Shown here piece by piece: positions 1,336 through 61,361 of a DNA stretch of 64,000 nucleotides (positions are counted from its first letter, which is position 1; every line of letters starts with the position of its first letter). The position numbers and the translations under genes were made by a program. The stretch covers positions 187,860,462-187,924,461 of the forward strand of contig CM077644.1 in the NCBI GenBank assembly GCA_039707465.1, in the 5' to 3' direction. Origin of the DNA: Rhabdophis nuchalis. Taxonomy: Eukaryota; Chordata; Lepidosauria; Squamata; Natricidae. The notes under the pieces are model-generated. The model worked only from the letters and a program-made list of their open reading frames with translations. It was not told the DNA's origin and searched no databases.

Positions 1336-1339
1336 TTTA

Positions 1340-2490: not shown

Positions 2491-2634
2491 CAGGGATGTC
2501 CAAACTTGGGAATTTTAAGACTTGTGGACTTCAACTCCCAGAATTCCCCAGCCAGCTATGCTGGCTTTGCTGGCTGGAGAATTCTGGGAGCTGAAGTCCT
2601 TCAGACTTAAAGTTGCAAAGGTTGGAGACCCCTG
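2491..2634. mobile_element. Palindromic hAT-type MITE (family A)
   Basis: A 144-bp near-palindrome whose arms meet around 'ccagctatgctggc'. The termini are 'cagggatgtccaaac' and the near complement of this at the right end, 'ggagacccctg'. CAG...CTG termini are typical of hAT. The flanking 8 bp do not match, so the insertion is old or the ends are eroded. The same core recurs at 26.3 and 55.9 kb. Confidence 0.8.
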
Positions 2635-2639
2635 CTCTA

Positions 2640-4860
2640 TATTGTTTGTGTAAAATATTCATGCTTTTGTTTTATTGATAATAAACCTGAACCCTCACTC
2701 TAGCCCCCTAAAAACTACAGATTATGCATCTATAATGAAGAGCATTTTGGCAGCAATGCACAACATTTTTACTGTAGTTTCAGATTGGAATGCAGGCAAG
2801 TTATTCATCTTGGCTAAAATTGTTTCTTAATTGTCAAACTTTATGCACAATTTAAAATGGCAAGGAAGCGCAGGAGATAAGAATGATCTAATAAGTTCCT
2901 CAAGCTGAAATTCATGAGTTTGCTTTCCAAGCCAACACCCTTTGGATACAAATACTAATGCATATACTTCAAATGAACAGTAACCATCTTAAACTTGTGG
3001 GTTGCAGAATCTCTCTCAGGGTCTTTTTGTAGCCAAGATTACTTGAAATACTTAAACATGTGAGATGAAATTGCTGTTTTCAAATCTCAGAAGACATTCA
3101 AAGTTAAAGGCTTTTTTAAAGTATTATTTTAATGCCAAGAAGCTAATGAGCTCTTCAAATAGATACTGTAATCTCTTTTTTTAATTCCTACCTGGCAATT
3201 AGTAATACAGATGAAAAAGATATGTGTTTTCCATTGGCTCTTGTATTTATGTTATTGGCTTGTTTAAATAGTAGCTTCAGTTCATATTAGGTTGGGCAAC
3301 CTGACAAAAAGATTAGGGCACATGGTAGAGGACTTTGGATACAAAACATGCATTTGTGGCAAAAAGTAATATGTGCCAGAAACATAAGAAATTGAAGTGA
3401 AGCCATGTCTGTCTTGCATCATGCATATCTCAACCATGGGCTGTCCTATCAGACAGTTAGAATTAGTTTAGAGAATGGTTGTCACAAAGCCAGTATAATT
3501 ATCTGTATACTATTAATTCAGAAAATAGGCATTATCATGATTTGGATAGAGCTATACAGTATATTCAGAATATGTCTGAAATGTACAAGTTCACATTAGA
3601 TGCAGTTACATTAAAAAAATCAATAAGTGTATCAGAGTGAAAACATTTAAATCAGAATTCTTACCTGATATAGTAGCTTTTTACATTCAGATAAGTTTTA
3701 AACGAGGTAGCTATTTGGACTTTGCTTATTTCTTTTAGTTCTATTAGAGAGCGAGGAAAAAAAGTACATAGAATTTTATTTGGATAGATTTTCTCTCAGA
3801 GATTATAGCAAGTGCAAATAGCAAGATTTTGGAAATACATGGATTGATTGATTCTATTTGAACACTCAGCAAGACTCTACAATTGCAGTCTCTATTTAAT
3901 AACACTTCAGTTGCAACAGTGATGTAAGTTTAGTTGATGAATGTTATTATTTTATGGTATCTGTTTCATAATAAGGATGCTGTAGGTAGATAGATGTATT
4001 TAGTATCAATTATGAGAGAAGCCGATGAATTGGTTTCCTGCAGCAAACAACCTACCCACAACATTCTTGTTATTTAATACAAGCAAATCCAGTACACCCA
4101 GTTATAAACAAAGAACTCAGTAGGCTTACTGACAGAGAACTTGCTCTATGTTCTCATATCTTCACCATGCTTCTTAATTTTAAGCACAGCTATAGCTACA
4201 TGTAATTTTATACTCCGATTATGCCAAGGAATGAAAAAGGACTATATTGCTACTATGTTGGTAGTCACCATATTCAATGCCTACTGAAGGTTGGTAATTC
4301 ACACAAAATCTAGATTAAGTACTGTTCCATCAGCCAATATTTTCTTTCTAAAGAGCTTGAACATTTCAATGTCCAGATGCTGATATTTCCTATTTGTAGA
4401 CTCTGTCCTTAGTCCTTGCAAATGCTTTTCCCCAAACAAGGTCCAGGTAGAAGAAGAACATCATGGCTTCAAAATCTAAGGGATTGATTTGGACAAAACT
4501 CAACAGCACTTTTTCATGTGGCTCTTGATAAAAATAGGATTGCCAACATGATCGCCAATGTCTGATGATGGATATGGCATAAGAAGAAGAAGAAAAATAA
4601 TGCATCAATGTAAATTTCTTCAGAATTTCTAATTACCATTGGGGGGAGGGGTGGACAGGTTTGCTGTAGTCATTTTAATTGCTAGAGTTTTCTGGAAATT
4701 GCATTCATTTGGTATTTTGTGGAAAAAATGACAGTAGTTGTCAAAAACTTCTAAAGAATAACAAATTGGATTGGCTGCATTATGGTTCTCTTCTTTCCCC
4801 ATTGCCAGTCTGCTGGAGAGGCTACAGTAGCAGTGCTTTAGTTGGTAATGAGATAAGCCA
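2640..4860. other. No gene seen; AT-rich unique DNA
   Basis: Only short chance reading frames occur. I recognise no repeat, exon or RNA gene in this 2.2-kb stretch. Confidence 0.45.
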
Positions 4861-22119: not shown

Positions 22120-24884
22120 GTGCAGGTTCTCGTTGTGTCAGAGGGGGAGCCGGACCTGGCAGGAATAGCGGAGACCTGGTTGGGCCACGAGGGTGGACTC
22201 CCCCTCGTTGAAATGTGCCCACCAGGTTACCGCGCTTTTCATCAGCCCCGGGCCCTAGGCAGGGGTGGTGGGGTAGCGGTTATTGTAAAGGAAGGTCTTG
22301 AGCCGAGAGAGACCATTGTGCCACAGACCACCGGTTGTGAGTCCCTCTGTGTGAAGTGGGGCCTAGGGAGGCAGTTGGGCTTGCTGGTTGTAGACCTGGC
22401 TCCCCGCTATGTAGCAGCAGCCCTGCCCGAGCTCCTGGAGGTGATCGCTATGGTGGCAGTTGAGACCCCCAGACTTTTAGTCATGGGGGACTTTAATCTG
22501 CCATCGGTGGGCGAATCATCCGAGGTAGCTCGGGAGTTCATGGCTTCCATGACGGCCATGGACCTGACCCAATTAATTCAAGGCCCCACCCACGAGGGTG
22601 GACATATGCCGGATCTCATCTTTGTCTCTGGCCAATGGAAGAGTGATCTGGGTACAGGGGATATAGTCATTACGCCCTTGTCATGGTCAGACCACTCACT
22701 TCTCCGGCTCGACTTTCCAACAGCTACTCCCCTCCGCGGGGAGGCGGAACCTGAGTCATCAATTTGGTTCCGCCCCAGGCGCCTGATGGACCCTGATGGG
22801 TTCCAGGCGGCGCTTGGGCCACTTCCTGTACCCCTGACCCACGCCCCGATGGAGGACCTCGTGGCCGCATGGAACATTGTGACCGCGGGAGCCTTGGATT
22901 GGGTCGCGCCCTTGCGGCCTCTCTTGCGGCGGCGAGTCACCTTGGCTCCTTGGTTTACCGAGGAGCTGAGGGTGATGAAACGCCACAAGAGATGCCTAGA
23001 GAGAAGATGGAGGTCTACCCGATCTGAATCTGACCGGACACAGGTAAGAGCCCATTTACGGACTTACATTGTGGCGCTGAGAGTGGCCAAACGTCATCAT
23101 TGTGCCACTCTCATAGCATCCGCAGATAACCGCCCTGCCGCCCTGTTTCGGGTGACCCGCTCCCTCCTTCAACAGAGGGTGCGGGAAGCCCCACTACAGG
23201 TTAGAGCAGAGGAATTTGTGATTTATCTGCAGGAGAAAATCGCTCAGATACAGAACGAGTTAGCCCCCATTGATGGCCCAGTGGGATTGCACGAGACAGA
23301 TCTTGTTTGGGAGGAGTTTGACTCCGTTACTTCCGAGGATATGGACAGGTTACGTGGGCGACTGCGAGCCACCACATGTTTATTGGACCCGTGTCCCTCC
23401 TGGCTTGTACTGGCATCCTGGGAGGTGACACGAGGCTGGCTCCAAGAGGTTGTCAATGCTTCCTTAAGTGAGGGTTCCTTGCCTGCCTCCCTAAAAGAGG
23501 CTATGGTGAGGCCCCTCCTCAAGAAGCCCTCTTTGGATCCAGCTTTATTAACCAACTATCGTCCAGTCTCCAACCTTCCCTTTCTGTCAAAGGTTGTTGA
23601 GAGTGTGGTGGCACAACAGTTTCCCCGTCTCCTGGAGGAAGTTGATTATCTAGATCCGTGCCAGTCCGGCTTTCGGCCCGGGCATAGCACCGAGATGGCA
23701 TTGGTCGCGTTGGTTGATGATCTCTGGAGGGGCAGAGATGGGGGTTGTTCCTCCATCCTGGTCCTATTAGACCTCTCGGCGGCTTTCGATACCATCGACC
23801 ATGGTATCTTATTGCATCGGCTGGGGGGGTTGGGGGTGGGAGGCACCGTTTTACGGTGGTTCTCCTCCTACCTCTCTGGCCGATTGCAATTTGTGTTGAC
23901 AGGAGAGCAGAGGTCGACCTCGAGACCCCTCACATGTGGGGTGCCTCAGGGGTCGGTCCTCTCGCCTCTCCTGTTCAACACATATATGAAGCCGCTGGGT
24001 GAGATCATCCGTGGTTTTGGGGTAGAGTATCACCTCTACGCTGATGATACACAGCTGTATATATCTACCCCAAACCACCCCAACGATGCCGTAGCGGTGA
24101 TGTGCCAGTGCCTGGAAGCCGTGCGGATCTGGATAGGAAGTAACGGACTCAGGCTCAACCCGACCAAGACCGAGTGGCTGTGGTTTCCGGCTGCCCGATT
24201 CAACCAGCTGATTCCATCGCTGGCCATAGGGGGCGAACATCTTGCCCCTGTGGATGGGGCGCGCAACTTGGGTGTCCTCCTGGATACCCGGCTGTCCATG
24301 GAAGATCAAGTCACAGCCGTGGCCAGGAGGGCGTTTTACCAGATTCGCCGGGTACGCCAGTTGCACCCCTATTGGATCGGGATGCCCTTCGCACAGTCAC
24401 TCATGCTCTTGTGACATCCCGACTGGACTATTGTAACTCTCTCTACATGGGGCTCCCCTTGAGGTGCATCCGGAGACTTCAGCTGGTCCAGAATGCAGCC
24501 GCGCGAGCAATAATGGGAACCTCAAGGTTTACCCACGTAACACCTCTCTTGCGCGAGCTGCACTGGCTGCCTGTCATCTTCCGGGTGCGCTTCAAGGTGC
24601 TAGTTGTCATCTTCAAAGTGCTCCATGGCTCGGGACCTAGTTACCTGCGGGATCGGATCCTGCCCCATACATCCTCATGGCCGATTCGCTCCCACAGAGA
24701 GGGACTTCTCCGGGTGCCGTCCACTAGATTCTGTCAGCGGGTGACGCCCAGGGGAAGGGCTTTCTCTGTGGCGGGCCCAGCCCTCTGGAACGACCTTCCC
24801 CCCGACATTAGAACAACCACGGACCTCCGCTCCTTCCGTCTAAAATTAAAAACACATCTTTTCTGCTTGGCCGGCCTAGGGTAG
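22120..24884 (+). pseudogene. L2 ORF2: AP endonuclease + reverse transcriptase (one frameshift)
   Basis: Nicks target DNA and copies the LINE RNA from the nick. APE-type endonuclease: AETW near residue 17-20 (catalytic E), GDFN at 123-126, SDH at 190-192. Reverse transcriptase: [20 protein letters not shown] entry, [24 protein letters not shown] with the first catalytic Asp near 551, [14 protein letters not shown], and YADD at about 640-643. The first frame (22120-24414) stops early because one C is missing in the C run at ~24365-24369 ('ttgcacccctattgg' against 'ttgcgccccctattgg' in the copy at 33.0 kb). The remaining C-terminus (QNAAARAIMG, LLRELHWLPV, LHGSGPSYLRDR, ALWNDLPPDI) continues in the next frame to 24884. 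So 764 residues precede the shift and ~170 follow. All catalytic motifs are present. Codon use is GC-rich, unlike the AT-rich surroundings. Confidence 0.92.
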
Positions 24885-29639: not shown

Positions 29640-31927
29640 TTTTTGTTTTGTTTCATTTTGTTTGTTTTTACTGTTTATATTTTATTTTCTATAATAAAAC
29701 AATAAATTTGTAAAAAAAAAATAAGGACTCATCAATTTAAAAAATACATGTGTTTTTAGTTTTGTTTTTTTTTAAACGAAGTTTCAGACCAGGCGCATCT
29801 GTGGGAGGAGAGGAGAGGATTAAAAATGTTAATATGGTAACTGTGATTACAGGTTGAACTCTCATCTCTTTGTTATAAGTGTTACCTGCAAGTCTTGTGT
29901 AAAAAGAGGAGGTAGGGCTTCAATAATATAGTCCTGGCCACTATCCTGCCGTTAATAATCTCTCTCCGAAGCACCTGTTTTAGAGAAATGAAATACATAT
30001 TAACTGGATATTCAAGCATTTTCCCAAGAGCAAAGTTGTTTGCAAAGAGCAGACTGGAACCCACCCTAAATGAGCTAGGTTAGCAGCCATATTTTTGCTG
30101 TATTTTTTATTAAAATAGCAAATAAATTAAGATGATACCATTAGTCAGTCATTTTTTTTTGACTCATTCTAGTCCTGCAGATTATCCAACAGTATCTCAT
30201 CTAATCCTTTCAAAGATTTGCTCAATTTTCTGCATAATTAATTGCATACTGTTTTAAGAACTATAGCTCTCTATTAGTACACTTAGTACAGAAAATAAAA
30301 GCTTTGTTATCTTGGATTTTCTTTGGAAGGATTGTTCCTTCTACACACTGTTGTATTTGTGCATTACTTCTTTATTGAGGTTTGGTGGTGTTCTTGATCT
30401 TACACAGGCCTCGAGATAGACAGTTATAGCTTTATAACATTCTTGTTTTTTTATTTGTTCACTTCATTTAGAAAAGCAGCCATTGCATCAGAAGTGTTTG
30501 TATGTCCACCCGCTTCACTTCTTACTCTATATATTTTGCTAGTCAAACTCCCCCTCCCCCATATCTACTTTGTCTTCTTATTAAACAACAGTTGCTTGTC
30601 CTTAGTTGGTCTTAAATATTTCTCTAACAAAGCTGTCTCTGTTTTTCCAACATGCCCATTTGCAGCCCACGCTCTTCCTGCACAGCTTTTCACTGATACC
30701 TTAGACCCCAATATTACTCCAAGTGACCTCATGCAACATCTGTAGTTGGGCTGGATTAAAAGACATGGGAAACCTTGACTGAACCATGTTCTGTGGGTCA
30801 AAAGATTTCCACTATCCAGCATTCATCCCCCCCCCTCTTTCTCTCCCTCTCTCTCTCCCTCTCTTTCTCTCTCTCTGTCTCTCTCCCAGTCCCTCCTTCC
30901 CTCTCTCTCTTTCTCTCTCTGTATCTCTCTCTGCCTGCACAAACAAAGACACAGCAAACTTCTGGAAGACCAGAAAGAAGCAGATGTTCAGGGAGTCTCT
31001 CTAATTCCACAGAAGGTCTGGCTGTTGTACAACCAGATATTTCACTCAGTAAGGCTCTTCAGGCACTTGGGAAAACACAGAGAAATGATTTAAAGTAATG
31101 TCGGTTTTTTAAAATAGCTATTCAAGTAACAAACACGTACATAAACTTAACTTGATCAGAATCTTTTTTTACAAAATAGTTTCCTATGTGTAAATGAGTT
31201 GTTTCATAAATATTTCTTCAACAGATTTTTTAAAATTATGTGTTATTTCAGAGGGCCTGAATCCTTAATGCACTTTAGTTCAATATTATACCACAAGTGT
31301 ATAATATTATACCACAAGTGTCAGCTAAGTGACTGCGCCCGAGATGACCTTGATGGTTTGCAACCCAAGTCCAACCCGAATTGGACTGGGGTAGTTCTTT
31401 GCAAGAACTTCATGAAAAACTACAGCTGTGGAACAAAACTGGGGGGGGGGGGAATCCCAGAAGAAAGAAATAGGGTTGTTATCAAATATACATGAATGCA
31501 TTAAGAGTTGAGCAATACCCAGAAACTGAAGGTTTAGGCCGACACAAAGCAAAGCAACATAACTGGTTCACCTTTGGTTCACCTGTAACTCTGGGGATTT
31601 TTAGAGATCTGGAAGAAAACAGCCAATAGTGACAGCTCCTCTGGAGATTGGGGCAGGGTGGAATCTAATCCACCTTCCTTCCCTGCAGATGATTTTTTCA
31701 CACTTCTTTTGAAAGAGAAATGTGTTAGTAATTTAGACCTGCTGTGGACTCCTCTGTATTTTTATGGGTGTACATTTTTATGGGAACAGAATATATTCAT
31801 AATCACATGATAAGTACAAATTGACTAAACACTAAGAAACAAGATGCTGCCAGCCTTCAGAAGTAAAACACAAGGACTTACCTCAGAAATAAATTAATCT
31901 CTTCCTATATGGAGCTTAGCTGTAATA
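29640..31927. other. No gene; several simple-sequence tracts
   Basis: Holds an AATAAA plus A-run near 29690-29722 that looks like a retroposed 3' end, a CT-rich tract at ~30830-30945, a 21-22-bp tandem duplication at ~31285-31326 ('ataatattataccacaagtg' twice) and a run of 12 G at ~31441. No exon is supported. Confidence 0.5.
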
Positions 31928-33545
31928 TTATTGATGGTCCAGTGGGAGGCCACGAGGCGGATCTTGGTTGGGAGGAGTTCGACTCTGTTACTTCCGAGGA
32001 TATGGACAGGTTACGTGGGCGACTGCGAGCCACCACATGTTTATTGGACCCGTGTCCTTCCTGGCTTGTACTGGCATCCTGGGAGGTGACACGAGGCTGG
32101 CTCCAAGAGGTTGTCAACGCTTCTTTAAGCGAGGGTTTCTTGCCTGCCTCCCTTAAAGAGGCTATGGTGAGGCCCCTCCTGAAGAAGCCCTCTTTGGACC
32201 CAGCTTTATTAGCCAACTATCGTCCCGTCTCCAACCTTCCCTTTTTGGCGAAGGTTGTAGAGAGTGTGGTGGCACAACAGTTTCCCCGTCACCTGGAGGA
32301 AGTTGATTATCTAGACCCGCGCCAGTCCGGCTTTCGGCCCGGGCATAGCACCGAGACGGCATTGGTCACATTGGTAGATGATCTCTGGAGGGCCAGAGAT
32401 GGGGGTTGCTCCTCCATCCTGGTCCTATTAGACCTCTCAGCGGCTTTTGATACCATCGACCATGGTATCCTATTGCATCGGCTGGGGGGGTTGGGGGTGG
32501 GAGGCACCGTTTTACAGTGGTTCTCCTCCTACCTCTCTGGTCGATCGCAATTTGTGTTGGCAGGAGAGCAGAGGTCGACCTCGAGATCCCTCACATGTGG
32601 GGTGCCTCAGGGGTCGGTCCTCTCACCTCTCCTGTTCAACACATATATGAAGCCGCTGGGTGAGATCATCCGTGGTTTTGGGGTAGAGTACCACCTCTAC
32701 GCTGATGATACGCAGTTGTATATATCTACCCCAAACCACCCCAACGATGCCGTAGTGGTGATGTGCCAGTGCCTGGAAGCCGTGCGGATCTGGATGGGAA
32801 GTAACAGACTCAGGCTCAACCCGGCCAAGACCGAGTGGCTGTGGTTTCCGGCTGCCCGATTCAACCAGCTGATTCCATCGCTGGCCATAGGGGGCGAACA
32901 CCTTGCCCCTGTGGATGGGGCGCGTAACTTGGGTGTCCTCCTGGATACCCGGCTGTCCATGGAAGATCAAGTGACAGCCGTGGCCAGGAGGGCGTTTTAC
33001 CAGGTCCGCCTGGTACGCCAGTTGCGCCCCCTATTGGATCGGGATGCCCTTTGCAAAGTCACTCATGCCCTTGTGACATCCCGACTGGACTATTGTAACT
33101 CTCTCTACATGGGGCTCCCCTTGAGGTGCACCCGAAGACTTCAGCTGGTCCAGAATGCAGCCGCGCGAGCAATAATGGGGACCGCAAGGTACACCCATAT
33201 AAACCTCTCTTGCGCGAGCTGCACTGGCTGCCTGTCGTCTTTCGGGGGCGCTTCAAGGTGTTAGTTATCATCTTTAAAGCGCTCCATGGCTCGGGACCTA
33301 GCTATCTGCGGGATCGGATCCTGCCCCATACATCCTCCCAGCCGATTCGCTCCCACAGAGAGGGACTTCTCCGGGTGCCGTCCACTAGACTTTGTCAGCG
33401 GGCGACGCCCAGGGGAAGGGCCTTCTCTGTGGTGGGCCCAGCCCTCTGGAACGACCTTCCCCCCGACATTAGAACAACCACGGACCTCCGCTCCTTCCGT
33501 CAGAAATTAAAAACGTACTTTTTCTGCTTGGCCGGCCTAGGTTAG
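31928..33545 (+). pseudogene. L2 ORF2 reverse transcriptase (one frameshift)
   Basis: RT and C-terminal portion only; the endonuclease is missing through 5' truncation. The frame is open from the junction to about 33198, with [48 protein letters not shown] and QNAAARAIMGTARYTH. One base is missing in 'cccatataaacctctc' against 'cccacgtaacacctctc' in the first copy, after which the C-terminus (LLRELHWLPVVFRGRFKVL to LAGLG) continues in the next frame to 33545. The first frame otherwise ends at 33264 with a chance tail. It is non-functional because it lacks the endonuclease and is frameshifted. The sequence is otherwise well preserved. Confidence 0.9.
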
Positions 33546-33771: not shown

Positions 33772-34186
33772 GCCTCCTTATTGCCTTTCCTGCTTCCACT
33801 GTTGTAACCAGAAGGAAATTTCTGTTCTATCATTCTACAACTTTCAACTCTATTATTTAAAACTAATAAGAATAAGAACAAAGATGATGACAATAGTACA
33901 GAAATACAAAAAGTTGAAGAAGTAAAAGTTTGGCTCAATACGGTTAGGTTTGCCAAGAAGATATACTAAATGAGCTAATAAAGGAAAATGTATTGTAAAG
34001 GAATAAAACCAAATTGCATTTAAAAACAAGCGGCTGATTATGTGAAACAAATCTGAGAAAAGAACTTATTTAAGAGCCAGTTCTTTATCAACACCTAGGG
34101 AAAATTAATAAGGAAGAAAACATAGAAATGATTTTAAAAGAGGCACATTAAAGAAAGGGCTTACTTCAGTGACTTAAGAACAGTTA
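33772..34186. other. No gene seen
   Basis: AT-rich DNA between an L2 tail and a hAT element. Confidence 0.4.
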
Positions 34187-34194
34187 GTGCATTC

Positions 34195-34563
34195 CAGTGG
34201 TGGGTTTCAAAATTTTTTAGAACCTACTCTGTAGGTGTGGCCTATTTTGTGGGCATGGCTTGGCAGTCATGTGACAGGGTGGGAGTGGCCACCTTTTAAA
34301 ATGTGGTGAAACTCATTTAACAACGCTCTTGAATTTTGGACTCAATTGTGATGATATATTCATTCTTTCCTTCCTTCCTTCCTTCCTTCCTTCCTTCCTT
34401 CCTTCCTTCCTTCCTTTCCTTTCCTTTCCTTCCGGGGGGGTCACTGGCAGCAGCAGGCTAGATTTACTTCCAGGTACGCCGGTGGAACCCCCTCTCACCG
34501 GTTCTGTAAATTTCACCAACCGGCTCTCGTGAGTAGGTGCGAGCCTGCAGAAACCCACCACTG
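34195..34563. mobile_element. Non-autonomous hAT element (family D), perfect TSD
   Basis: A 369-bp element. Its 14-bp inverted terminus CAGTGGTGGGTTTC is perfect at both ends, and the perfect 8-bp target duplication gtgcattc lies at 34187-34194 and 34564-34571. It contains an internal (TTCC)n microsatellite (34364-34433). It has no coding. The terminus resembles family B but the body is different. Confidence 0.93.
34364..34433. repeat. (TTCC)n microsatellite inside hAT element
   Basis: About 14 TTCC units followed by TTTCC units and a G run. Confidence 0.95.
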
Positions 34564-34825
34564 GTGCATTCAATAGTATGAAAACTACACCTAGTAGCAA
34601 ATTTCAACAATATAAATAACAGTTGCACACTGTTGAACACCTGGTGTGTGGGTGTAAGAGGATTGCACAGGCTGAGCATTTAGAAGACACAATAAAGTGG
34701 CCACCCTGATCCACAGGCATTTTAATAAGAATTATAACTTACCAGCAACAAAGATTTGGTGGAATCAGAATATTGAAAAAGTGGTTAAGAACAAAGACAT
34801 TGCAATCCTCTGGGACTTCCAAATT

Positions 34826-35453
34826 CAAAATATTAGGTTTAGGTTTAGGTTTTATTAGTTTTTTATACCCCCCTACTCCCGAAGGACTCAGGGCGGTGTA
34901 CAGCCAAAGTAAAACAGATATAAAAGTTTTAAAAGTAAAAAAAAAACATATTAAACAATTTGGCCTCAAAATTAAAAAACCAAACAAACCCCGATTAAAA
35001 TTAATAAACATTCGTAATTTAAAATTCATTTTTATGCCAGCCGGGCTTGGAAAAAAAAGATTTTGAGAGCACGGTGGAAGGTGCATAAGTCAGGGATAGT
35101 TCTTAATTCTGGGGGCAATTTGTTCCAGAGGACAGGTGCTCCCACAGAGAAGGCTTTCCCCCAGGTGTTGCCAGTTGACATTGTTTAGCTGACGGCACCA
35201 TGAGGAGACCCTCTCTATGGGAGCGTACTGGCCAGTGGGAGGCTCTCGGTGGCAGAAGGCGATCTCGTAGGTACCCAGGTCCTAAGCCATGGAGCGCTTT
35301 AAAGATAGTAACCAACACCTTGAATTGCACCCGGAAAACCACCGGAAGCCAGTGCAGTTCGCGCAGGAGGGGTGTTACATGGGAGCGTCGTGTCGCCCCC
35401 ATAATTACCCATGTGGCCGCATTCTGGACCAGTTGGAGCCTCCGAGTACTCTT
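34826..35453 (-). mobile_element. L2 LINE 3' part, antisense (left of insertion)
   Basis: Starts with a TTTAGG-like tail and 'actcagggcggtgtacagc' (antisense 3' UTR). It then carries the C-terminal codons on the minus strand: IMGATRRSHVTPLLRELHW, FKALHGLGPGYLRDR and GKPSLWEHLSSGTNC (decayed). It is interrupted at 35453 by the ORF1-only element and resumes at 37454-37482 ('ggggatccccatgtagagag'). Unlike its neighbours it is intact across the ATRRSHVTPLL segment. Confidence 0.88.
35439..35453 (+). repeat. 15-bp target site duplication, left
   Basis: cctccgagtactctt, identical to 37439-37453. Together they delimit the inserted element. Confidence 0.93.
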
Positions 35454-35727
35454 TTTTATATTGAAAAAGTTTTATTGAGTTTACATTTTTTGTGGGGTAG
35501 GGTAAGGGATACATAGAAATTTTGAGAGTAGTCACGTCAAAGTCGTTGGCACCTCCGGTACCTCAAGTTACATTATTAAAAAGAAAGAAAAGAAACATTT
35601 CACATAACACTACAAGCTGGGAGCAAGTACATATTCCTAAATTTTTCAGTTATATACTGTCAGTCAATTACAAAAATCCAGATTACAAATATCATACAAT
35701 ATTACTCAAGAAAAAACCAGGGCAAAG

Positions 35728-36576
35728 TTATTTTTTAGATCTAAGTCTCTTGGCAATTGTATCTTCCACCTTCTCCCCCGGGCCCCCAGCGGGCGGGGCC
35801 ATGGCTCCCCCTGCCCCCCCTGGATCTTCTCCCAGGACAGAGGAATGTTTTTTAAGAAAGGCTTCCGCCTCAGCAACTGTTTTAATCTTCACTCTACCTC
35901 CTTCCCAGAACACCAGCATCCCTTCGGGTATCACCCACTTGAACCAGATTCCATGATCAAACAATGTTTTAGACAAGAAGGAAAATTTCCTTCTGGCTTC
36001 TCTAATCTTTCTTGGAATCTGCTTCAAGATGGTAACCTCCTTTTGTTGGTAAATCATAGGACTCCCTCTTTGCGCCTTCAGGATTTCCTCTCTGGTTGAC
36101 CTTCTGACAAATTTTACATGTATCTCTCTGGGTACTTCATTCATCCTGGCATATGCAGAATTAATTCTGTAGACTAGGTCAATGTCCCCTCTGATCTCAT
36201 CTTTAGGTTTATGTAAATAGTCTGCAATAATTGTACTCATAAGATCAGGGAGACATTCACCATCCATCTCAGAAACATTCTGAAATCTCAAAAAGTATGT
36301 CATCCTTTCCATATCTATCCTAGTCACATGCCCATTTATTTCCACAACCTCATTAGAAACATTTTTAATCTCTCCCTTAGCCCCCTCCAGCCCCCCTTTC
36401 AATTCTTCATTCTTCTGTGTATTCTCAAGCACTTGTTTTCGAGTGTCCAGTAATTCCTTTTTAAAATTGACATTTTCTGCCCTCTGGGCCTTAATTTCTA
36501 ATACCAAATTTTGTATAACAGATTCAAGGGCAGTCATTCTTTGTTCAAGGCTTGCCAGCGTTGCTTCTTGTGCCAT
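35728..36576 (-). CDS. L1-like ORF1 protein, intact, 282 aa
   Basis: Predicted trimeric RNA-binding chaperone that would package element RNA in the cytoplasm. Residues ~5-85 form heptad-rich coiled coil (LASLEQRMTALESV, LDTRKQVLENTQKN). Residues ~90-165 are RRM-like (MTYFLRFQNVSEMDG; DIDLVYRINSAYARMN; VPREIHVKFVRRSTREEIL). Residues ~170-245 match the L1 ORF1 C-terminal domain (MIYQQKEVTILKQIP; REARRKFSFLSKTL; GIWFKWVIPEGMLVFW; EAEAFLKKHSSVLG). A Gly/Pro-rich linker (GGAGGAMAPPAGG) leads to a basic end (IAKRLRSKK). The ATG at 36576 is the first in the mature frame; 'gctattaag' and short stops precede it. Compared with human ORF1p (338 aa) it is a little short at the N terminus. No frameshift or stop is present. 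The product is likely functional if transcribed (inference). Confidence 0.9.
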   Translation of the reverse strand: MAQEATLASLEQRMTALESVIQNLVLEIKAQRAENVNFKKELLDTRKQVLENTQKNEELKGGLEGAKGEIKNVSNEVVEINGHVTRIDMERMTYFLRFQNVSEMDGECLPDLMSTIIADYLHKPKDEIRGDIDLVYRINSAYARMNEVPREIHVKFVRRSTREEILKAQRGSPMIYQQKEVTILKQIPRKIREARRKFSFLSKTLFDHGIWFKWVIPEGMLVFWEGGRVKIKTVAEAEAFLKKHSSVLGEDPGGAGGAMAPPAGGPGEKVEDTIAKRLRSKK

Positions 36577-36949
36577 GTTTAGCTATTAAGATCCGTGCCA
36601 GTAAAATGGCGTTTTTAGGGTGGGGCTGGCGAGGCAGATCAGGAATCCAAAGTTCTCAAAGTTGTAGAGCTGCAGAGTTCAGAAACCAGAAGAGAAACAC
36701 TTTTCCAACTCCATAGGTATAATAACGAAGGTAATCCAGAAAGGAAAACACAAATCCAAAAGAAAAAAATTCTTCATCAATAATTAGAGGAAGTCCAAAT
36801 CACAAAGAGACACTGGTAATTTTCCATAGGTCATAGTCAGTCGGGGACAAAGAGAAGCCATTTTCCGCCCAAGCTCAGAGCCCGAGGGAGAAAGCGGTTA
36901 AAAAGCAAAAAAGAAACTGTTTCAGCCAGACCTAGAGACATAATTGCAA

Positions 36950-37438
36950 ACAAGCCGCAAAGTACTTTCCCTTGTTAGAGACCATCCGGATTAAAAGTTT
37001 CCGATTCCTCGCAACGAGGCATTTCCGAGTGCCGCTTTTAGTCCAAGGGGGGGTTTTTGGGAACAAACACCCCCCTCCTGTCCCTTTCAGCCCGGCTGAC
37101 AGTACAAAAAAAAAAGTTTTAATAGCTCACTCTCCGCTCGCAGCTGAGGTCCCGAGAAGCCTCCCGACTCTTCCGATCGCCTCTCTTCATAGAATTAAAT
37201 GGTGCCGCCAACCTTTGGCGAAGGAAAAGCCCCCCGCAGCATGTCCTCTTCCGCCTAAGCCGAGGATCGGGGTCGCTTTCCCCACTGCCATGGGGGGGGG
37301 GCTTCCCCGTCGAGCCGGCTTTACGGGAGAAACCCCAAACAAGGGGCTTCTCGCCCCCGCGGGGGGGCAGGAAAAGGAACAAAGCGGCGAGCGAACCCTA
37401 AGTTCGCCCGTCGCCGCCGGAGCCGGAACCGGAAGTCC
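36950..37438 (-). promoter_or_regulatory. GC/CpG-rich leader, probable internal promoter
   Basis: The start of the element is rich in CpG, in contrast to the AT-rich genome. It contains ETS-like 'ccggaagt' near its very 5' end (around 37429-37436), several G runs and many CG dinucleotides. Young LINEs carry their promoter here. The promoter role is inferred; only composition and position are seen. Confidence 0.5.
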
Positions 37439-37453
37439 CCTCCGAGTACTCTT
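37439..37453 (+). repeat. 15-bp target site duplication, right
   Basis: Identical to 35439-35453. The interrupted L2 continues directly after it. Confidence 0.93.
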
Positions 37454-37482
37454 CAAGGGGATCCCCATGTAGAGAGCATTGC
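37454..37482 (-). mobile_element. L2 LINE remainder, antisense (right of insertion)
   Basis: 'aggggatccccatgtagaga' matches the antisense of the SLYMGLPLR codons and directly continues the L2 at 34826-35453. The L2 is 5'-truncated here. Confidence 0.8.
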
Positions 37483-39260
37483 TATATTAAACATGTAGTC
37501 CACAATAAGTCAGATATGACTGTACTGTAGCTACAAAGAAATAAAAATGGGTAATTGGCACGAGGTGACTGAAAATATATATACCTTCTGCTAGAAAAAA
37601 TAGGAAAATATAAACATCTTTGAATAGAGATTGGGTGAATGTGGAGAAAGAAAGCATAATGGTGTCAGTCGTGGCTGGTGTGTTTGACACTATCAAAAGG
37701 TCTAGAAAAACTCTTTTAACACAATAGGAATGGTCAGAATCTCAGCTCATTAATTACAAAGAGTTGCATTACTTGGAACAGCAGATATATTATGACAATG
37801 TTACTAATTATCTTAGTTCCTTGGAAGGGATCTGATAGGCAAAAGTATCAAATCCAGTTATAAATATTAGAGTACATGTAACTAGCAATAATAATATTGC
37901 AGAACAATATTGTCTCAACTCTAAACTTCTAAAGTACATTGTATACAAATGCTAACGTGATGTAAAAAATTAGACATTTTAATTGTTTGGCAGCAGAAGC
38001 CATTCACTTTTGCTCTTTAGCTTTCTTGCCTTCACTTTGATCTGTGCATTGATTTACATTAGCCCCACCGTGTCTGTTGAATGATGTGGGGGATGGGAGC
38101 CATGAATAGAACCAACTGGTAAAAATATATGGCTGTACTACTGTAGATTGATGCCTAAATTCTTCTCAAGTGAACAAGTAGGGATTAGTCCCTCCAGTGC
38201 ATTACTTTTTCTAACTCACCATTACCACTTCCTGACCCTGCAGTCACACAATCTGAAGTGGGAAGCTTAAGGACACCACCGGAATCAAAGTGTTTGTGAG
38301 TGTCTCAATCCTACAGGAAAAGTCCTTAATCTCATCTTGCAAATGCTGCTGCTTGCCAATTTTCTAGGCAATGAAGAGATAACAGACTTGTAATAGAAAT
38401 AGGACTGTGCATTGAGCAGTTACATAAAGCACAACACATTCAGCTCAGTGACAAAAATATGAGACGTTGCTTACCACTGCCACGTGGTAAGCAACTCGTC
38501 CTTTGAAATCCTAGGCTAAATGAATGGTACTTTTCTTAACATTTAGAATTTTTTTAATGGAGAGAGAGAAAGCTGGGAGTGTTCAGGAGAAAAAAGCCAC
38601 ATAGCCAAATGCATCAGGCAGATGTGGCCAGACATCCCACCTGAAATGCCAGCTGGATGTGTACTAGCATTCTTGGAGCGTCTGAGGCCCAAACGACTGC
38701 TTTGAACTTACTGTAATATTTGTCATTTCCTGATCGTATGGCGTTCCTTAGAGGGCACTCACTATCCATTCCACAACACCATCTTGTAAGGATCCTCTTC
38801 CTTAGCTTTCTTTTTTCTCGTGAATGTGGATATTTCATTCAATAAAACCAAAATAATAAATTATGTTCCTTAAATTTCTGGCTGTATTCACACAGTTCAT
38901 AACCAAAACCAGACAGAAATTCATTGTAAAGAGTATAGGCAAATGGTTAACACATTTTGATACATTTTTGGCAAAGCTAGAAATTTGTGAAATAGTTTGA
39001 GTTTCTTTTCTTTTCTTTGGAGTCTTCACTCGGCTTAGGTTGGAAAAAATGTATACAAGAAGTATAGGACCACTAGCCCCATCGTTATAATGATTCAACA
39101 ATTGAATTGACAGCAGGCAGTATTTGCCAATAGCTTGCTTGTATAGATACCCACAAAGAAAAACAGTGAATCATCTTCCAATTACTTAAGGTTCTCTAGC
39201 ATTTGTGCCATTAACAAGACAGTTCTGATTGCTGTCGCCAAATACAATAAATTTCAGCAA
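37483..39260. other. No gene seen; one perfect small hairpin
   Basis: Unique-looking DNA. A perfect 12-bp-arm hairpin, gttgcttaccac / gtggtaagcaac with a 6-nt loop, lies at 38466-38495. No exon is supported. Confidence 0.45.
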
Positions 39261-40118: not shown

Positions 40119-42566
40119 CTATTTTTAATTTATTTTAATTTATTTTATTTTATCAAATTTATATAATGCCCTATCTCCCCGAAGGGACTCAGGGCGGTGC
40201 ACAGAAATATAAAAAACAAATACAATACAATACAATACAAAACAGTTTAAAATGAATTAAATTAGGATCTGTGCTAAAAAATTGGATTAGAAAAGGTTAA
40301 AATCAATTAAAACTTTACCCATTAAAACTAAGCCAGGCCGGCCTCTTGAAATAGATGTGTCTTTAATGACCGGCGGAAGAGGCGTAGGTCCGTGATGGTA
40401 CAAAGGTCGGGGGGGTAGGTCGTTCCAGAGGGCAGGCCCTGCCACAGAGAAGGCTCTCCCCCTGGGGGCAACCTGTCAGCATTGTCTGGCAGATGGCACC
40501 CTGAGGAGGCCCACCCTGTGGGAGCGAACAGGTCTAAGGGAGGTATGTGGTAGGAGGCGGTCCCGCAAGTAGCCAGGTCCCGTGCCATGGAGCGCTTTAA
40601 AGATGGTTACTAGCACCTTGAAGCACACCCGGAAGGCCACAGGCAGCCAGTGCAGCTCGCGCAGGAGCTGGGAGTATGGGAGTATTGAGACACTCCCAGG
40701 ATCCCCTGCACGGCCGCATTCTGGACTAGTTGGAGCCTCCAGGTGCACCTCAAGGGGAGCCCCATGTAGAGAGCATTGCAGTAGTCCAGGCGAGAGGTGA
40801 CAAGCGCTTGAGTGACCGTGCGTAAGGCGTCACGATCTAGATAGGGGCGCAACCCCTATCAGATGAACCTGATAAAAGGCCTCCCTGGTCACGGCTGTCA
40901 CGTGGTCATCCAATGACAGCCGAGAATCCAGGAGGACGCCCAGATTGCGAGCCCTATCCGTGGGGGCCAGTGACTCGCCCCCGATAGCCAGAGATGGAAC
41001 CAGCTGACTATATCATGACACCGGGAACCACAGCTACTCGGTCTTGGATGGGTTGAGTCGGAGTTTGTTCCTCCCCATCCAGACTCGCACGGCCTCCAGA
41101 CACTGGGACATCACTTCGACGGCATCGTTGGGGTGGTTAGGGGTAGAGATGTACAGCTGAGTATCATCAGCGTACTGATGGAACTCTACCCCAAAACCAC
41201 GGATGATCTCGCCCAGCGGCTTCATGTAGATGTTAAACAGGAGGGGTGAGAAAACCGACCCCTGAGGCACCCCACATGAGGGGCCTCGACGTCGACCTCT
41301 GCCCTCCTGCCAACACAAATTGCGACCGGTCGGAGAGGAAGGAGGAGAACCACCATAAAACGGTGCCTCTCAACCCCAACCTCTCCAGCTGGTGCAATAG
41401 GATACCATGGTCGATGGTATCAAAAGCCACCGAGAGATCTAATAGGACCAGGATAGAGGAATGACCTCTATCCTGAGCCCTCCAGAGATCATCCACCAAC
41501 GCGACCAATGCCGTCTCCGTGCTGTGCCCAGGCCGGAAGCCAGACTGGTGCGGGTCTAGATAGACAGTTTCCTCCAGGTGCTGGGGGAACTGTTGTGCCA
41601 CCACACTCTTAACAATGTTCGCTAGAAAACAAAGGTTGGAGACCGGATGATAATTAGCCAGCTCTGCTGGGTCCAGGGAAGGTCCCTTGAGGAGGGGTCT
41701 CACCACCACCTCTTTCAAGATGGCTGGCAAGAACCCCTCACTCAAGGAAGCATTCACTATTCCCAGGAGCCAGTCTCGTGTAACCTCCCGGGAGGCCAGT
41801 ACAAGCCAGGAGGGGCACGGGTCCAATAAACATGTGGTGGCATTCAGCCGCCCCAGCAGCCTGTCCATGTCATCGGGAGAAACAAGGTCAAACTCATCCC
41901 AGAAAATGGTCTCAAGACCTGCCTCCACCCGCCCACCTGAGCTAATCTCATCGGAGGTCAGTTCGTCACAGATTTGAGCGATTTTATCCTGCAGATAACA
42001 TCCAAATTCCTCTGCCTGGCCCTGCAAGGGAGCTTCCCACGGCCTCTGTTGAAGGAGGGAGAGGGTCACTCTAAACAGGGCGCCAGGGCGGTTATCTGCA
42101 GATGCGATAAGAGCGGAGAGTTAATTGCGTTTCGCCGCTCTTATCGCCACAAGGTAGGTCCGCAAATGCAACCTTACCTGTGTTTGGTCAAGTTCAGAAT
42201 GAGTAGACCTCCAAATGCTCTCTAGGCATCTCTTTTGGCCCTTCATTACCCTCAGTTCCTCCGAGAACCAAGGAGCCAGGGTAGATCAATGCCGAGAGAG
42301 AGGCCGCAAGGGCACAACCCGGTCCAAGGCCGCACTATTCCAAGCGGCCACTAGGTCCTCAGTCGAGTCGCAGGACAGGGTCACAGGTATTGGCCCAAGC
42401 TCCATCTGGAACCTCTCTGGGTCCATCAGGCACCTGGGACGGAACCATATTGGTATTTCTGGTTCCGCCTCCCCACGGTGGGGTGTGGTGGTTTGGAAGT
42501 CAAGCCACAGGAGTGAATGATCTGTCCATGACAGGGGTGTGATGACTATTTCCCTCAATCCCAGAT
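40119..42566 (-). pseudogene. L2 LINE, antisense, multiply broken
   Basis: Minus-strand L2 from the SDH motif of the endonuclease (PLSWTDHSLLWLDF near 42540) through RT to the 3' UTR and an AATAA-like tail at ~40119-40160. Recognisable parts: [56 protein letters not shown] (decayed CGVPQGSV in one frame), [47 protein letters not shown]. At least five frame breaks separate the pieces (42570-42286, 42069-41233, 41318-41034, 40852-40610, 40748-40476, 40588-40328). It is older than the copies at 22 and 32 kb. Confidence 0.88.
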
Positions 42567-42570
42567 TCAT

Positions 42571-42885
42571 TCATTCATTCATTCATTAAACTTATATACC
42601 GCTCCCTTTTCCAAAAAGGGACTTGGGGCGGTGCTCAGGAAATTAAAAAAGCATATATAAACATGACAATATACAAAATTTAAAATCAAATTAAATTGTT
42701 AACCCTGTGCTAAAATTTACAATAAATTAAACTATTACCCTTAAAAACCAATTAAAACAATTTGATGTCAGGCTAAAGGCTAGATAGAGTTGGGCCAGGC
42801 CGGTCTGTGGAAAAAGTAAGTCTTGAGTTTCTGACGGAAAGAACGGAGGTCCGTGGTCGTTCTGAGTTCGGGGGGTAAGTGGCCG
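42571..42885 (-). mobile_element. L2 LINE 3' end, antisense, with (ATTC)n tail
   Basis: Starts with five ATTC units, then 'cttatataccgctccctttt', 'gggacttggggcggtgctca' and 'gggccaggccggtctgtgga', the antisense 3' UTR and last codons. It joins a sense L2 copy at about 42886. Confidence 0.8.
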
Positions 42886-44470
42886 ACCATCTTGAAAGAG
42901 GCGGTGGTGAGGCCCCTCCTCAAGAAGCCGTCCCTGGACCCAGCTTTATTAGAGAACTATCGTCCGGTCTCCAACCTTCACTTTTTAGTGAAGGTTGTTG
43001 AGAGTGTGGTAGCCCAACAGTTTCCGCGACACCTGGAGGAAGTTGATTATCTAGACCCGCGCCAGTCCGGCTTCCGACCCGGTCACAGCACCAAGACGGC
43101 ATTGGTCGCGTTGGTTGTTGATCTCTGGAGGGCGCGGGATAGAGGTTATTCCTCTATCCTAGTCCTATTAGACCTCTCGGCGGCTTTTGATACCATCAAC
43201 CATGGTATCCTATTGCACCGACTGGGGGGATTGGGGCTGGGAGGCACCGTTCTGCAGTGGTTCTCGTCCTACCTCTCTGGTCGGTCACAATATGTGTTGA
43301 CGGGAGGGCAGAGGTCGACCTCGAGGCCTCTCCTATGTGGGGTCCCTCAGGGGTCGGTCCTCTCGCCCCTCCTTTTCAACACATATATGAAGCCGCTGGG
43401 TGAGATCATCCGTGGTTTTGGGGTGGAGTACCATCTGTACGCTGATGATACTCAGTTGTACATATCCACCCCAAACCACCCCAACGATGCCGCCGAAGTG
43501 CTGTCCCGGTGTCTGGAAGCCGTAAGGATCTGGATGGGTGGTAACAAACTCAAGCTCAACCCTGCCAAGACTGAGTGGCTGTGGTTTCCGGCACCCCGGT
43601 TCAGCCAGATTATTCCAACTCTGGCCATTGGGGGTGAAACACTGGCCCCCGTGGAGAGGGCGCGCAATTTGGGTGTCCTCCTGGATTCCTGGCTGTCCAT
43701 GGAGGACCATGTGGCAGCCGTGGCCAGGGGGGCGTTTCATCAGGTACACCTGATGCGCCAATTGCGCCCCTTACTGGATCGGGATGCCCTTCGCACAGTC
43801 ACTCAAGCTCTCGTGATGTCCCGACTCGACTATTGTAATGCTCTCTACATGGGGCTTCCCTTGAGGTGCACTCGAAAGCTACAGCTAGTCCAAAACGAAG
43901 CCGCGCGGGTGATTATGGGAGCCATGGGGGGTTCCACATAACACCGATCCTGCGCAAGCTGCATTGGCTTCCTGTGGCCTTTCGAGTGCGCTTCAAGGTT
44001 TTGACAACCATCTTTAAAGCGCTCCATGGCTCGGGGCCTAGTTATATGCGAGACCGCCTCCTGCCCCATACATCCCTTAGACCGATACGCTCCCACAGAG
44101 AGGGCCTCCTCAGGGTGCCGTCGGCCGGACAATGCCGACTGGCGACACCCAGGGGGAGAGCCTTCTCTGTGGTGGGGCCAGCCCTCTGGAATGACCTACC
44201 CCCTGAATTATGTACCATCACCGACCTCCGCCTCTTCCGCCAATGTCTTAAGACATATTTGTTTCAACAAGCCGGCCTAGCCTAACCTCCCATGGGGACT
44301 TTTAGGTAGTTTTAAATTGGGTTTTTAAATTTTGGTTTTAGCGCAGGATAGGTTTATTTAATAGTTTTTAAATTATATTTATTGTATTTTGTATGTTTTT
44401 AAATTTCCTGTGCGCCGCCCTGGGTCCTCTGTGGAGAAGGGCGGGATATAAATTTAAATAAATATAAAAT
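42886..44470 (+). pseudogene. L2 LINE RT part, sense copy within the nest
   Basis: Open from '[20 protein letters not shown]' through [55 protein letters not shown] and QNEAARVIMGAMGG to a stop at 43941. A net loss of one base just before 43941 shifts the rest (HITPILRKLHWLPV to QAGLA) into another frame ending at 44285. The 3' UTR with 'gcgccgccctgggtcc' and an AAATA-rich tail follows to 44470. The endonuclease is missing. Confidence 0.88.
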
Positions 44471-45805
44471 ATAAATATAAATTGCGATCGACCGTAGAGG
44501 TAGGAGGAGAACCACCGTAAAATGGTGCCCTTCACCCCCAACCCCTCCAGTCGATGCAATAGGATACCATGGTCGATGGTATCGAAAGCTGCCGAGAGGT
44601 CTAATAGGACCAGGATGGAGGAACAACCCCCATCTCTGGCCCTCCAGAGATCATCAACCACCGCGACTAATGCCGTCTCGGTGCTGTGACCGGGCCGGAA
44701 GCCAGACTGGCGCGGGTCCAGATAATCAATTTCCTCCAGGTGACGGGGAAACTGTTGTGCCACCACACTCTCTACAACCTTCGCCAGAAAGTGAAGGTTG
44801 GAGACCGGACGGTAATTTGCCAACAATGCTGGGTCCAGGGAAGGCTTTTTGAGGAGGGGCCTCACCACCGCCTCTTTCAAGATGGTCGGCAAGAACCCCT
44901 CACTCAAAGAAGCATTCACAACTTCCTAGAACCAGCCTCGTGTAACCTCGTGTAGCATCCCAGGATGCCAGTACAAGCCAGGAGGGACACGGGTCCAATA
45001 AACATGTGGTAGCTCGCAGTTGCCCATGTAACCTGTCCATATCGTCGGAAGTAACAGAGTCAAACTTCTCCTACAAAGATGTCTCAAGACCTGCGTCCAA
45101 TAATCCCTCCAGACTACATTCGGTGGAGGCCAGTTCACTCCGGATCTGAGCGATTTTATCCTGCAGATACTCTCCAAATTCCTCTGCTCTACCCTGCAAC
45201 GGGGCTTCCCGCTGCCTCTGTTGAAGGAGGGAGCAGGTCACCCTGAACAGGGCGGCAGGGCAGTTATCTGCGGATGCAATAAGAGTGGCGCAATAATGGT
45301 GTTTGGCCACCCTTATCGCCACAAGGTAAGCCCTCACTTGGGCTCTTGCCTGTGTTCGGTCAGATTCGGACCGTGTGGATCTCCATCTATTCTCTAAGCA
45401 TCTCTTGTGGTGTTTCATCACCCTCAGCTCCTCGGTAAACCAAGGAGCCTGCGTGGCTCGTCGCCGCACGAGAGGCCGCAAGGGTGTGACCCGATCCAAG
45501 GCCCTGGCGGCCGCAGTACTCCATGCGGCCACAAGGTCCTCCGTCAGGGCATGGGTCAGGGTCACAGGCAATGGCCCAAGCTCCGTCTGGAACCTTTCGG
45601 GATCCATCAGGCGCCTGGGGCGGAACCACTTAGGAATATCTCGTTCCGCCTCCGGTGGGGTATGGCGGTTGGAAAGTCGAGCTGGAGAAGTGAGTGATCT
45701 GACCATGACAGGGGTATGATGGCTAACTCCCCTACTCCCAGATCATTTCTCCACTGGCCGGAGGCAAAAACTAGGTCTAGCATGTGCCCCCGGTGTGAGT
45801 GGGCA
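44471..45805 (-). pseudogene. L2 LINE endonuclease-RT part, antisense
   Basis: Read on the minus strand from 45805: GHMLDLVFASGQWRNDLG and LSWSDHSLLQLDFPTAIP (end of endonuclease), the linker ATQAPWFTEELRVMKHHKR, then RT up to [14 protein letters not shown] and [10 protein letters not shown] at 44471, where it stops abruptly against the tail of the sense copy. The RT palm second half and C-terminus are absent. Frames are broken at ~45177 and ~45080. Confidence 0.87.
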
Positions 45806-60677: not shown

Positions 60678-61361
60678 GTGTTGTGGATAATTTCTTCCCT
60701 TGTTTTCCTACATTTGGAACTTTTGTCCTTTTGCACATATAATAAGCAGCGGATTGTGGTCCAAAGTGAAGAACCTACTTCAGAAATGCAAAAGTGTGAA
60801 CCAGGGATCATGCATCAGTCACACAACAAGAGCAAGGTACCCAAAAAGAGAAGTCACCTCCTGATTGGTGACTCAATCGTAAGAGATGTAAACTTAGGTA
60901 AGGATATGGAGGTTTTGAAAGATGTCAGATGTTTACCGGGTGCTACAGCCAGCAGAGACAAGAGGCGTATTCTTAAGATAGTCAAGAATGCAAGTAAGGA
61001 CTGTAAAGTTGATGCTATTATACATCTTGGCACAAATGATCTGTCCCATAAAGATGTAGCTTCTGTGCAGAATGATTTCCAGAGTTTGGGGTACGAACTT
61101 AGTAGTACAGGTTGTAGGCTTATCTTCTCAGAGGTTATACCAGTATACAAGGAACAAAAAGGAAAGGGCCAGCGCATAGCAGAGTTTAATGTGTGGCTAA
61201 AGGAGTGGTGTAAAAAGGAAGGCTTTGGTCTTATTAGTCATGATGCCTGCAGCTGGTCCAATGATAAACTGTACAAAAGAGATGGTTTGCACCCATCCAA
61301 GAAAGGGACTGAGTTACTTGGCACTAAATTCACAGATTTCCTGGCTAAACATTTAAACTGA
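60678..61361 (+). CDS. CR1 ORF1 C-terminal SGNH-esterase part
   Basis: Encodes the lipolytic SGNH-hydrolase domain found in ORF1 of CR1-clade LINEs, thought to help the ribonucleoprotein interact with membranes or to act as a nucleic-acid partner (role not settled). Visible blocks in the 227-residue frame: GDS at 64-66 (nucleophile Ser), GTND at 118-121 (Asn), DGLHPS starting at 202 (Asp and His). So all four signature positions are present. The frame is intact to the TGA at 61359-61361. The first ~30-40 residues (from [10 protein letters not shown]) are probably flanking sequence fused by 5' truncation, because CR1 homology begins near MQKCEPG. The N-terminal zinc/PHD-like and coiled-coil parts of full CR1 ORF1 are missing. 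Confidence 0.85.

What the first reader, a model, noticed from the sequence alone, without database searches (positions are those of the whole stretch)
35439..37453. Full-length ORF1-only L1-like element with intact ORF and perfect TSD in a squamate
Seen: a 1985-bp insertion with a 15-bp perfect target duplication, GC-rich leader, intact 282-codon L1-type ORF1, 3' UTR with AATAAA and an A-rich end, and no ORF2. Known: ORF1-only 'half-L1' (HAL1) elements are described from mammals and use L1 ORF2 in trans. Inference: an equivalent, recently mobile, lives in this reptile. It would be either an independent origin of the half-L1 strategy or an unrecognised wider distribution. It is the best candidate here for an undescribed system.
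Basis: partly seen in the sequence, partly recalled or inferred. Interest (0 to 1): 0.87.

Follow-up and report, generated by a model that had tools for sequence, protein, structure and literature searches.

The report
Reptile half-L1 jumping gene
This is a young copy of a jumping gene, present more than a thousand times in what looks like a reptile genome, that carries only the first of the two genes of the L1 element and so probably borrows the copying enzyme of complete L1s; the same way of life was known from mammals ('half-L1').

Summary
In detail: a 1985-bp minus-strand insertion with a 15-bp perfect duplication, an 862-nt leader, an intact 282-codon ORF1, a 274-nt 3' UTR and no ORF2. 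The window's own 1.92-Gb genome could be searched. The family is large and young: 2148 ORF1/3'UTR junctions at up to 3 mismatches and 1492 exact 3' ends, controls 0. Of 30 copies chosen only by the 3' end, none shows an ORF2. The protein has the L1 ORF1p fold. 32 of 46 testable copies have 9-24 bp duplications, with A-tails and an L1-like cut site. A sister subfamily, about 72% identical, has the same architecture; ORF1 between the two is under purifying selection (dN/dS 0.24-0.26). An intact L1 with ORF1 and ORF2 was read in the same genome; its ORF1p is 32% identical and its 3' UTR differs. A second, distantly related ORF1-only family (361-aa ORF1) was found inside one copy. Best reading: reptile 'half-L1s' that supply ORF1p in cis and use L1 ORF2p in trans. 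The trans step, the partner and independence from mammalian HAL1 are inferred.

The parts
35454..37438 (-). complete ORF1-only L1-type (half-L1-like) retrotransposon copy, 1985 nt
   Evidence: same two ends in 24 of 30 fetched copies, this one included, and in a 25th around a later insertion
37439..37453 (.). target-site duplication, 5' side of the element (CCTCCGAGTACTCTT on +)
   Evidence: TSD AAGAGTACTCGGAGG on the element strand
35439..35453 (.). target-site duplication, 3' side of the element
36577..37438 (-). 862-nt GC-rich 5' leader, starts GGACTTCCGG; presumed internal promoter (inferred)
   Evidence: same start in most full-length copies
35728..36576 (-). ORF1, 282 codons, L1 ORF1p homologue
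36301..36573 (-). coiled-coil part of ORF1p (residues 2-92)
   Evidence: predicted helix 2-92
36022..36297 (-). RRM domain of ORF1p (about residues 94-185)
35833..36012 (-). C-terminal domain of ORF1p (about residues 189-248)
   Evidence: 2ykp aligned over residues 48-254
35454..35727 (-). 274-nt 3' UTR directly behind the ORF1 stop codon, no ORF2
35460..35476 (-). AATAAAACTTTTTCAAT: polyadenylation signal and 3'-terminal block shared with the second ORF1-only family
35103..35402 (-). part of an older RT-encoding LINE copy beside and into which the element inserted (same motifs as the RT-type ORFs at 22120-24884)
   Evidence: by direct reading of the translations

Best explanation
The feature is a recent full-length copy of a non-autonomous L1-clade retrotransposon that encodes only ORF1p, a reptile half-L1. 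Its RNA is made from the element (inferred, promoter in the leader) and ends at the AATAAA-directed poly(A) site (inferred from the tails). It is bound in cis by the trimeric ORF1p it encodes (inferred from the fold and from selection on ORF1). The target is then nicked and the RNA reverse-transcribed by ORF2p of a complete L1 acting in trans (inferred). The insertions show the outcome: L1-like cut sites, A-tails, 9-24 bp duplications and many copies complete at the 5' end. The family (subfamilies A and B, sharing the ORF1-stop/3'UTR junction) has kept ORF1 coding while it diversified, so the cis-encoded ORF1p most likely matters for its spread. Origin independent of mammalian HAL1 is inferred from the squamate homologues, not tested.
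Against: Trans use of ORF2p is inferred; no expression or mobilisation data exist here. The partner was not found: three autonomous L1 families read at their 3' ends (one copy each, L082, L083, L085) do not share the 3' UTR, although an older W-type copy in L061 ends in a stretch 3 mismatches from AATAAAACTTTTTCAAT (40 columns at 78%, E 6e-4). Only 60 of more than 1000 copies were read. Other L1 families (59,413 first-look candidates, 150 scored) were not read, so a rare ORF2-bearing relative is not excluded. The coiled coil is no better conserved between A and B (63-68%) than leader and 3' UTR. dN/dS among L001-L030 is biased because these were picked by protein score. The A-B value would also arise if selection had acted in an autonomous ancestor. 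The cut-site motif is partly built in: my rule extends a duplication leftwards through A, which forces a non-A at -1 and favours A at +1; the T at -2 and the near absence of G at -1 are not forced. 14 of 46 copies gave no duplication by the rule. Some sampled copies share a flank (L029/L030, L031/L037, L032/L034/L035), so counts of insertions are somewhat high.
Confidence: 0.85

Rival explanations
1. Passive internally deleted L1: ORF2 was lost from a complete L1, the remnant spreads like a SINE through L1 ORF2p, and its ORF1 is only a passenger.
For: Origin by loss of ORF2 is the likely start of any half-L1. L1 RT can use other RNAs (PMC3880073, passage seen). The coiled coil is no better conserved between A and B than the untranslated parts.
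Against: Subfamilies A and B share the junction and 3' UTR, yet ORF1 differs far less at non-synonymous sites. 10 of 30 copies chosen by the 3' end still have an ORF1 of at least 280 aa, three of these ten being one duplicated locus. The ORF1 of the one autonomous L1 read is only 32% identical, so this is no fresh deletion of that family.
Confidence: 0.08
2. Autonomous members with the same ORF1 and 3' UTR exist but are rare, or have recently died out, and the ORF1-only copies are their derivatives.
For: Only a sample was read; first-look candidates for L1 ORF2 are many. An older W-type L1 ends in a stretch 3 mismatches from the shared 3' block.
Against: No ORF2 in 60 sampled copies; no spacing near 4-5 kb among the listed places; one copy each of families X, Y and W has another 3' UTR.
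Confidence: 0.1
3. Processed pseudogenes of a domesticated ORF1-derived host gene (as L1TD1 is in mammals).
For: A single-ORF transcript with poly(A) and duplications would look the same copy by copy.
Against: More than 1000 copies; nested subfamilies with several young groups at once and a 72%-identical subfamily also with intact copies ask for many sources. A progenitor with introns was not searched for.
Confidence: 0.03

Closest known systems
HAL1 (half-L1) of mammals
   Same: L1-derived, encodes ORF1p only, thought to use ORF2p in trans while ORF1p works in cis; arose several times (PMC5753468 and PMC3627910, passages seen; the primary paper, Bao and Jurka 2010, is not held).
   Different: Reptile host; the 6 named homologues of its ORF1p are squamate and the window protein gives no Transposase_22 hit in Pfam; two distantly related ORF1-only families in one genome that end alike. 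No mammalian HAL1 sequence was compared.
Autonomous L1 of the same genome (L082, my label Y)
   Same: Homologous ORF1p (32% over 218 aa), 5' end beginning GG(A/C)TTCCGG, A-tail, 15-bp TSD.
   Different: Has ORF2 with EN and RT; other 3' UTR; ORF1 of up to 382 aa.
SINEs and other L1-mobilised RNAs (recalled)
   Same: Non-autonomous, mobilised by LINE proteins.
   Different: No ORF in SINEs; here ORF1 is intact and under selection.
HeT-A of Drosophila (recalled, no call)
   Same: A non-LTR element with a gag-like ORF and no reverse transcriptase.
   Different: Telomere-specific, from another clade; these copies are dispersed over many contigs.

Membership tests
half-L1 (ORF1-only L1 derivative) as a kind | encodes L1 ORF1p | tested here: met
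half-L1 (ORF1-only L1 derivative) as a kind | no ORF2 in the family's copies | tested here: met
   none in 60 read copies; 2148 direct ORF1/3'UTR junctions; not all copies were read
half-L1 (ORF1-only L1 derivative) as a kind | amplified as a family with common ends | tested here: met
half-L1 (ORF1-only L1 derivative) as a kind | L1-type insertion (A-tail, duplication, TTTT/AA-like cut site) | tested here: met
   32 of 46 with duplication, T at -2 in 23 of 32, T or C at -1 in 30 of 32; the A side is partly built into the rule
half-L1 (ORF1-only L1 derivative) as a kind | ORF1 kept coding over time | tested here: met
   selection in an autonomous ancestor is not excluded
half-L1 (ORF1-only L1 derivative) as a kind | mobilised by ORF2p of an L1 in trans | not testable with these tools
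   intact ORF2 present in the genome, partner not identified
mammalian HAL1 by descent | derived from a mammalian L1 lineage | not tested
   no mammalian HAL1 or L1 sequence was put in a tree; the 6 named homologues are squamate
Pfam Transposase_22 (PF02994) | score above the curated cut-off | tested here: not met
   not among the 6 families listed at E up to 1 for the window protein; 6 of 12 members of A2 match at E up to 0.1, best E 0.0055
autonomous L1 | ORF2 with EN and RT | tested here: not met

The most novel reading that the evidence does not exclude
In this reptile, ORF1-only elements are not short-lived deletion products. They form long-lived parasitic lineages of their own (A/B with the 282-284-aa ORF1, and the distantly related 361-aa family). 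These have diversified next to autonomous L1s from which they are now far removed, keep their own ORF1p under selection, and end in the same 3'-terminal block (AATAAAACTTTTTCAAT), which may be a docking end for a shared ORF2p donor.
Probability: 0.35. Interest if true: 0.75.

Novelty: new member of a known kind. Interest (0 to 1): 0.57.

Why it matters
If true, it extends the half-L1 strategy beyond mammals, with perhaps two origins in one genome. That makes a standing question testable: does ORF1p act only in cis on its own RNA, and is ORF2p free to serve RNAs coated by a distantly related ORF1p? A genome with many young copies, intact ORF1s and intact autonomous L1s is a natural place to test it. 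It also warns annotators: thousands of ORF1-only copies can pass for fragments of L1, or for uncharacterised genes like some of the named snake and lizard proteins.

Tried and rejected
Rejected: single-copy curiosity; fresh internal deletion of L1 family Y (ORF1 32% identical, other 3' UTR); derivative of families X or W as far as one 3' end each shows; an older W-type copy in L061 does end in a stretch 3 mismatches from the shared block, so W remains the best candidate for a partner. Host-gene retropseudogenes are disfavoured. A 1097-aa W-type ORF2 frame that looked like an intact helper proved to be cut by an inserted copy of the window family (L084). Dating by dS was left out: no rate for this host, and dS of 0.74 is high.

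The count of 5' ends did not complete. The search for PF02994 in the genome was asked once, met a busy machine and was not asked again. The RVT_1 search of the genome did not complete and was replaced by a search with an ORF2 piece. The ORF1-end pattern was typed with one wrong base, so its 1183 places stand as a rule for at most 2 real mismatches.

Full report
What was checked. The window element lies on the minus strand from 37438 to 35454. It has a 15-bp perfect duplication, an 862-nt leader, a 282-codon ORF1 (36576-35728) and a 274-nt 3' UTR that ends AATAAAACTTTTTCAATATAAAA. It sits beside and in an older LINE copy whose translated pieces read like the RT-type ORFs elsewhere in the window (by reading). 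Rfam has nothing at 34000-39000.

A family, not a single copy. The window is part of an unnamed 1.918-Gb assembly of 348 contigs. An ORF1 protein search scored 138 of 38,443 first-look candidates; all cover 282 of 282 residues at 98-100%, and 133 of 138 have no stop. These were picked by score, so intactness is overstated. The 25-nt 3' terminus occurs 1492 times exactly (739 and 753 by strand), control 0. A 36-nt pattern across the ORF1 stop and the start of the 3' UTR occurs 2148 times with up to 3 mismatches, control 0.

Ends and ORF2. Of the 30 best copies, the window's own (L003) included, 24 align uninterrupted to both ends (start within nt 20, end at nt 1983-1985). L006 does so around a later insertion, and 5 are 5'-truncated at nt 522-791. 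The fairer sample is the first 30 places of the 3' terminus on C1, with 1.5 kb upstream. 24 run from ORF1 into the 3' UTR (one, L049, with a piece of ORF1 missing). L045 begins 9 nt before the ORF1 stop, behind a run of N, so its upstream part is unknown. Two (L040, L041) have ORF1 and a partly missing 3' UTR. Three (L033, L039, L055) are truncated inside the 3' UTR. No ORF2 was found upstream in any; the only ORF2 match among them, in L057, lies on the downstream side. Ten of the 30 still have an ORF1 of at least 280 aa; L032, L034 and L035 among them share a flank and count as one insertion. By place on C1, within the listed and capped tables, junction and 3' end lie 255-269 nt apart in all 6 pairs (of 15 junctions). 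ORF1 end and 3' end lie 288-301 nt apart in 12 of 13 pairs (of 18); one lies 10.3 kb away, more than an ORF2 would need.

How copies were inserted. Of 60 copies given, 46 could be tested, and 32 of these have a duplication of 9-24 bp. Around the cut, T stands at -2 in 23 of 32, T or C at -1 in 30 of 32, A at +1 in 27 of 32. The rule extends a duplication leftwards through A because an A-tail precedes the second copy. That forces a non-A at -1 and favours A at +1, so only the T at -2 and the near absence of G at -1 are free evidence. Most tails are A-runs. Together this is the footprint of L1-type endonuclease and target-primed reverse transcription (established knowledge). Some sampled copies are duplicates of one insertion (L029/L030, L031/L037).

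Selection and age. A second subfamily, B, with a 284-aa ORF1, has the same architecture at about 72% DNA identity. Between A and four B copies no inserted stretch longer than 7 nt lies behind nt 1200 of the element. dN/dS between the window and six B copies is 0.24-0.26 at dS 0.74-0.77; between B copies that differ at silent sites it is 0.10-0.31. Differences at codon positions 1, 2, 3 are 53, 37, 99 of 282 (L059), p 8e-17 for non-synonymous against synonymous. RRM-CTD identity is 83-86% against 69-70% in the 3' UTR and 63-66% in the leader; the coiled coil, at 63-68%, is no better conserved than these. Among 24 full-length A copies the nearest relative differs by 0.3-1.3% (the L029/L030 pair is one duplicated insertion). 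The tree of 40 copies has several supported nested groups with short tips (bootstrap not fully settled). Several sources were therefore active recently.

The helper. A piece of L1 ORF2 found next to L006 was used to search the genome: 150 scored of 59,413 candidates. They fall in three identity bands, here labelled W (81-100% to the query), X and Y (61-66%); 12 of 150 lie in open frames of 1252-1291 aa. L082 (Y) is a complete L1: start GGCTTCCGG, ORF1 of up to 382 aa, ORF2 of 1250 aa with EN (54.1 bits) and RT (131.1 bits) above cut-off, 15-bp duplication AAGATGTTGGATAGC by eye. Its ORF1p is 32% identical to the window's over 218 aa. Its 3' end and those of one X and one W copy are different. 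An older W-type copy in L061, however, ends in a stretch 3 mismatches from AATAAAACTTTTTCAAT (40 columns at 78%, E 6e-4). W is thus the best candidate, but the partner is not identified. The L1 reverse transcriptase is known to act on other RNAs (PMC3880073, passage seen), so a shared 3' UTR is not required.

A second ORF1-only family. L006 is interrupted by another element (L061, reverse strand, 975-3942). It starts GGACTTCCGG, has a 361-aa ORF1 (29% to the window's over 194 aa) and a 1.2-kb 3' UTR without an ORF2 match, and ends AATAAAACTTTTTCAATTAAAA. It is flanked by AATAATGTAACTTG. Its ORF1 search scored 113 of 27,040 candidates at 97-100%, 107 of 113 without a stop (chosen by score). Its junction occurs 397 times (up to 3 mismatches, control 0) and its 3' end 171 times exactly (control 0). 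I paired the 100 listed junctions with 56 of the 61 3' ends listed on C1-C3, leaving out five beyond the last listed junction. 18 pair within 12 kb: 16 at 1.00-1.19 kb, 2 at about 2.08 kb, none longer. Three 3' ends without a near junction show neither this element nor ORF2 at about -1.2 kb. So this too looks ORF1-only. The last 23 columns of the two 3' UTRs are 96% identical (E 7e-5). The tree puts the two ORF1s in different clades (the 361-aa row has a long branch, so its exact place is unsure).

Known or new. HAL1 is described as a non-autonomous derivative of L1 that encodes only ORF1p and that arose several times in mammals (PMC5753468, passages). In guinea pig its ORF1p was kept for about 29-44 Myr, taken to mean cis ORF1p with trans ORF2p (PMC3627910, passages); PMC4161310 calls HAL1s likely clients of L1 (passage). 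The primary paper could not be read. For prior reports I saw search listings only (in several only the top 6-30 of many papers are listed); no listed title or abstract start names a reptile half-L1. The library is incomplete and Repbase was not searchable, so absence from print is not shown. The element works like HAL1 and meets the tested features of the kind. Descent from mammalian HAL1 was not tested; the squamate homologues speak for an independent origin (inference).

Verdict. The step not shown is the use of ORF2p in trans. The most interesting part is that two separate, young, abundant ORF1-only families live in one genome and end alike.

Noticed in passing
L061 (reverse strand 975-3942; about G000:C5:93837959-93840925): A second ORF1-only family (361-aa ORF1, 1.2-kb 3' UTR) inserted into a copy of the window family; multi-copy and young.
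   Followed up: yes
L084, G000:C8:31107300-31108500: A window-family copy sits inside ORF2 of a W-type L1 and cuts its frame.
   Followed up: partly
G000, places: A third, diverse group of L1 ORF1s (46-56% identical to the unnamed protein P0005; 134 scored of 32,789 candidates), many in open frames of about 300-340 aa; not known whether ORF2 follows.
   Followed up: partly
G000:C7:4942678-4943361:+: An ORF1 match lies in an open frame of 2022 aa, far longer than the other ORF1 frames in that table; unexplained.
   Followed up: no
G000:C14:6.6-8.1 Mb and C2:139.5-140.7 Mb: Near-identical ORF1 matches (299-aa frame) and W-type ORF2 matches recur within short distances, which suggests duplicated arrays.
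   Followed up: no
window 60678-64000: A LINE with a GDSL-esterase-like first ORF (PF13472, 39.3 bits) and an RT frame running off the window end, CR1-like by recollection.
   Followed up: partly
window 22120-24884, 31909-33545, 41233-42069, 42853-43941, 45071-45706: Several long, partly open RT-type LINE copies that read alike; EN and RT domains were found in the first and RT in the second, the others by reading only.
   Followed up: partly
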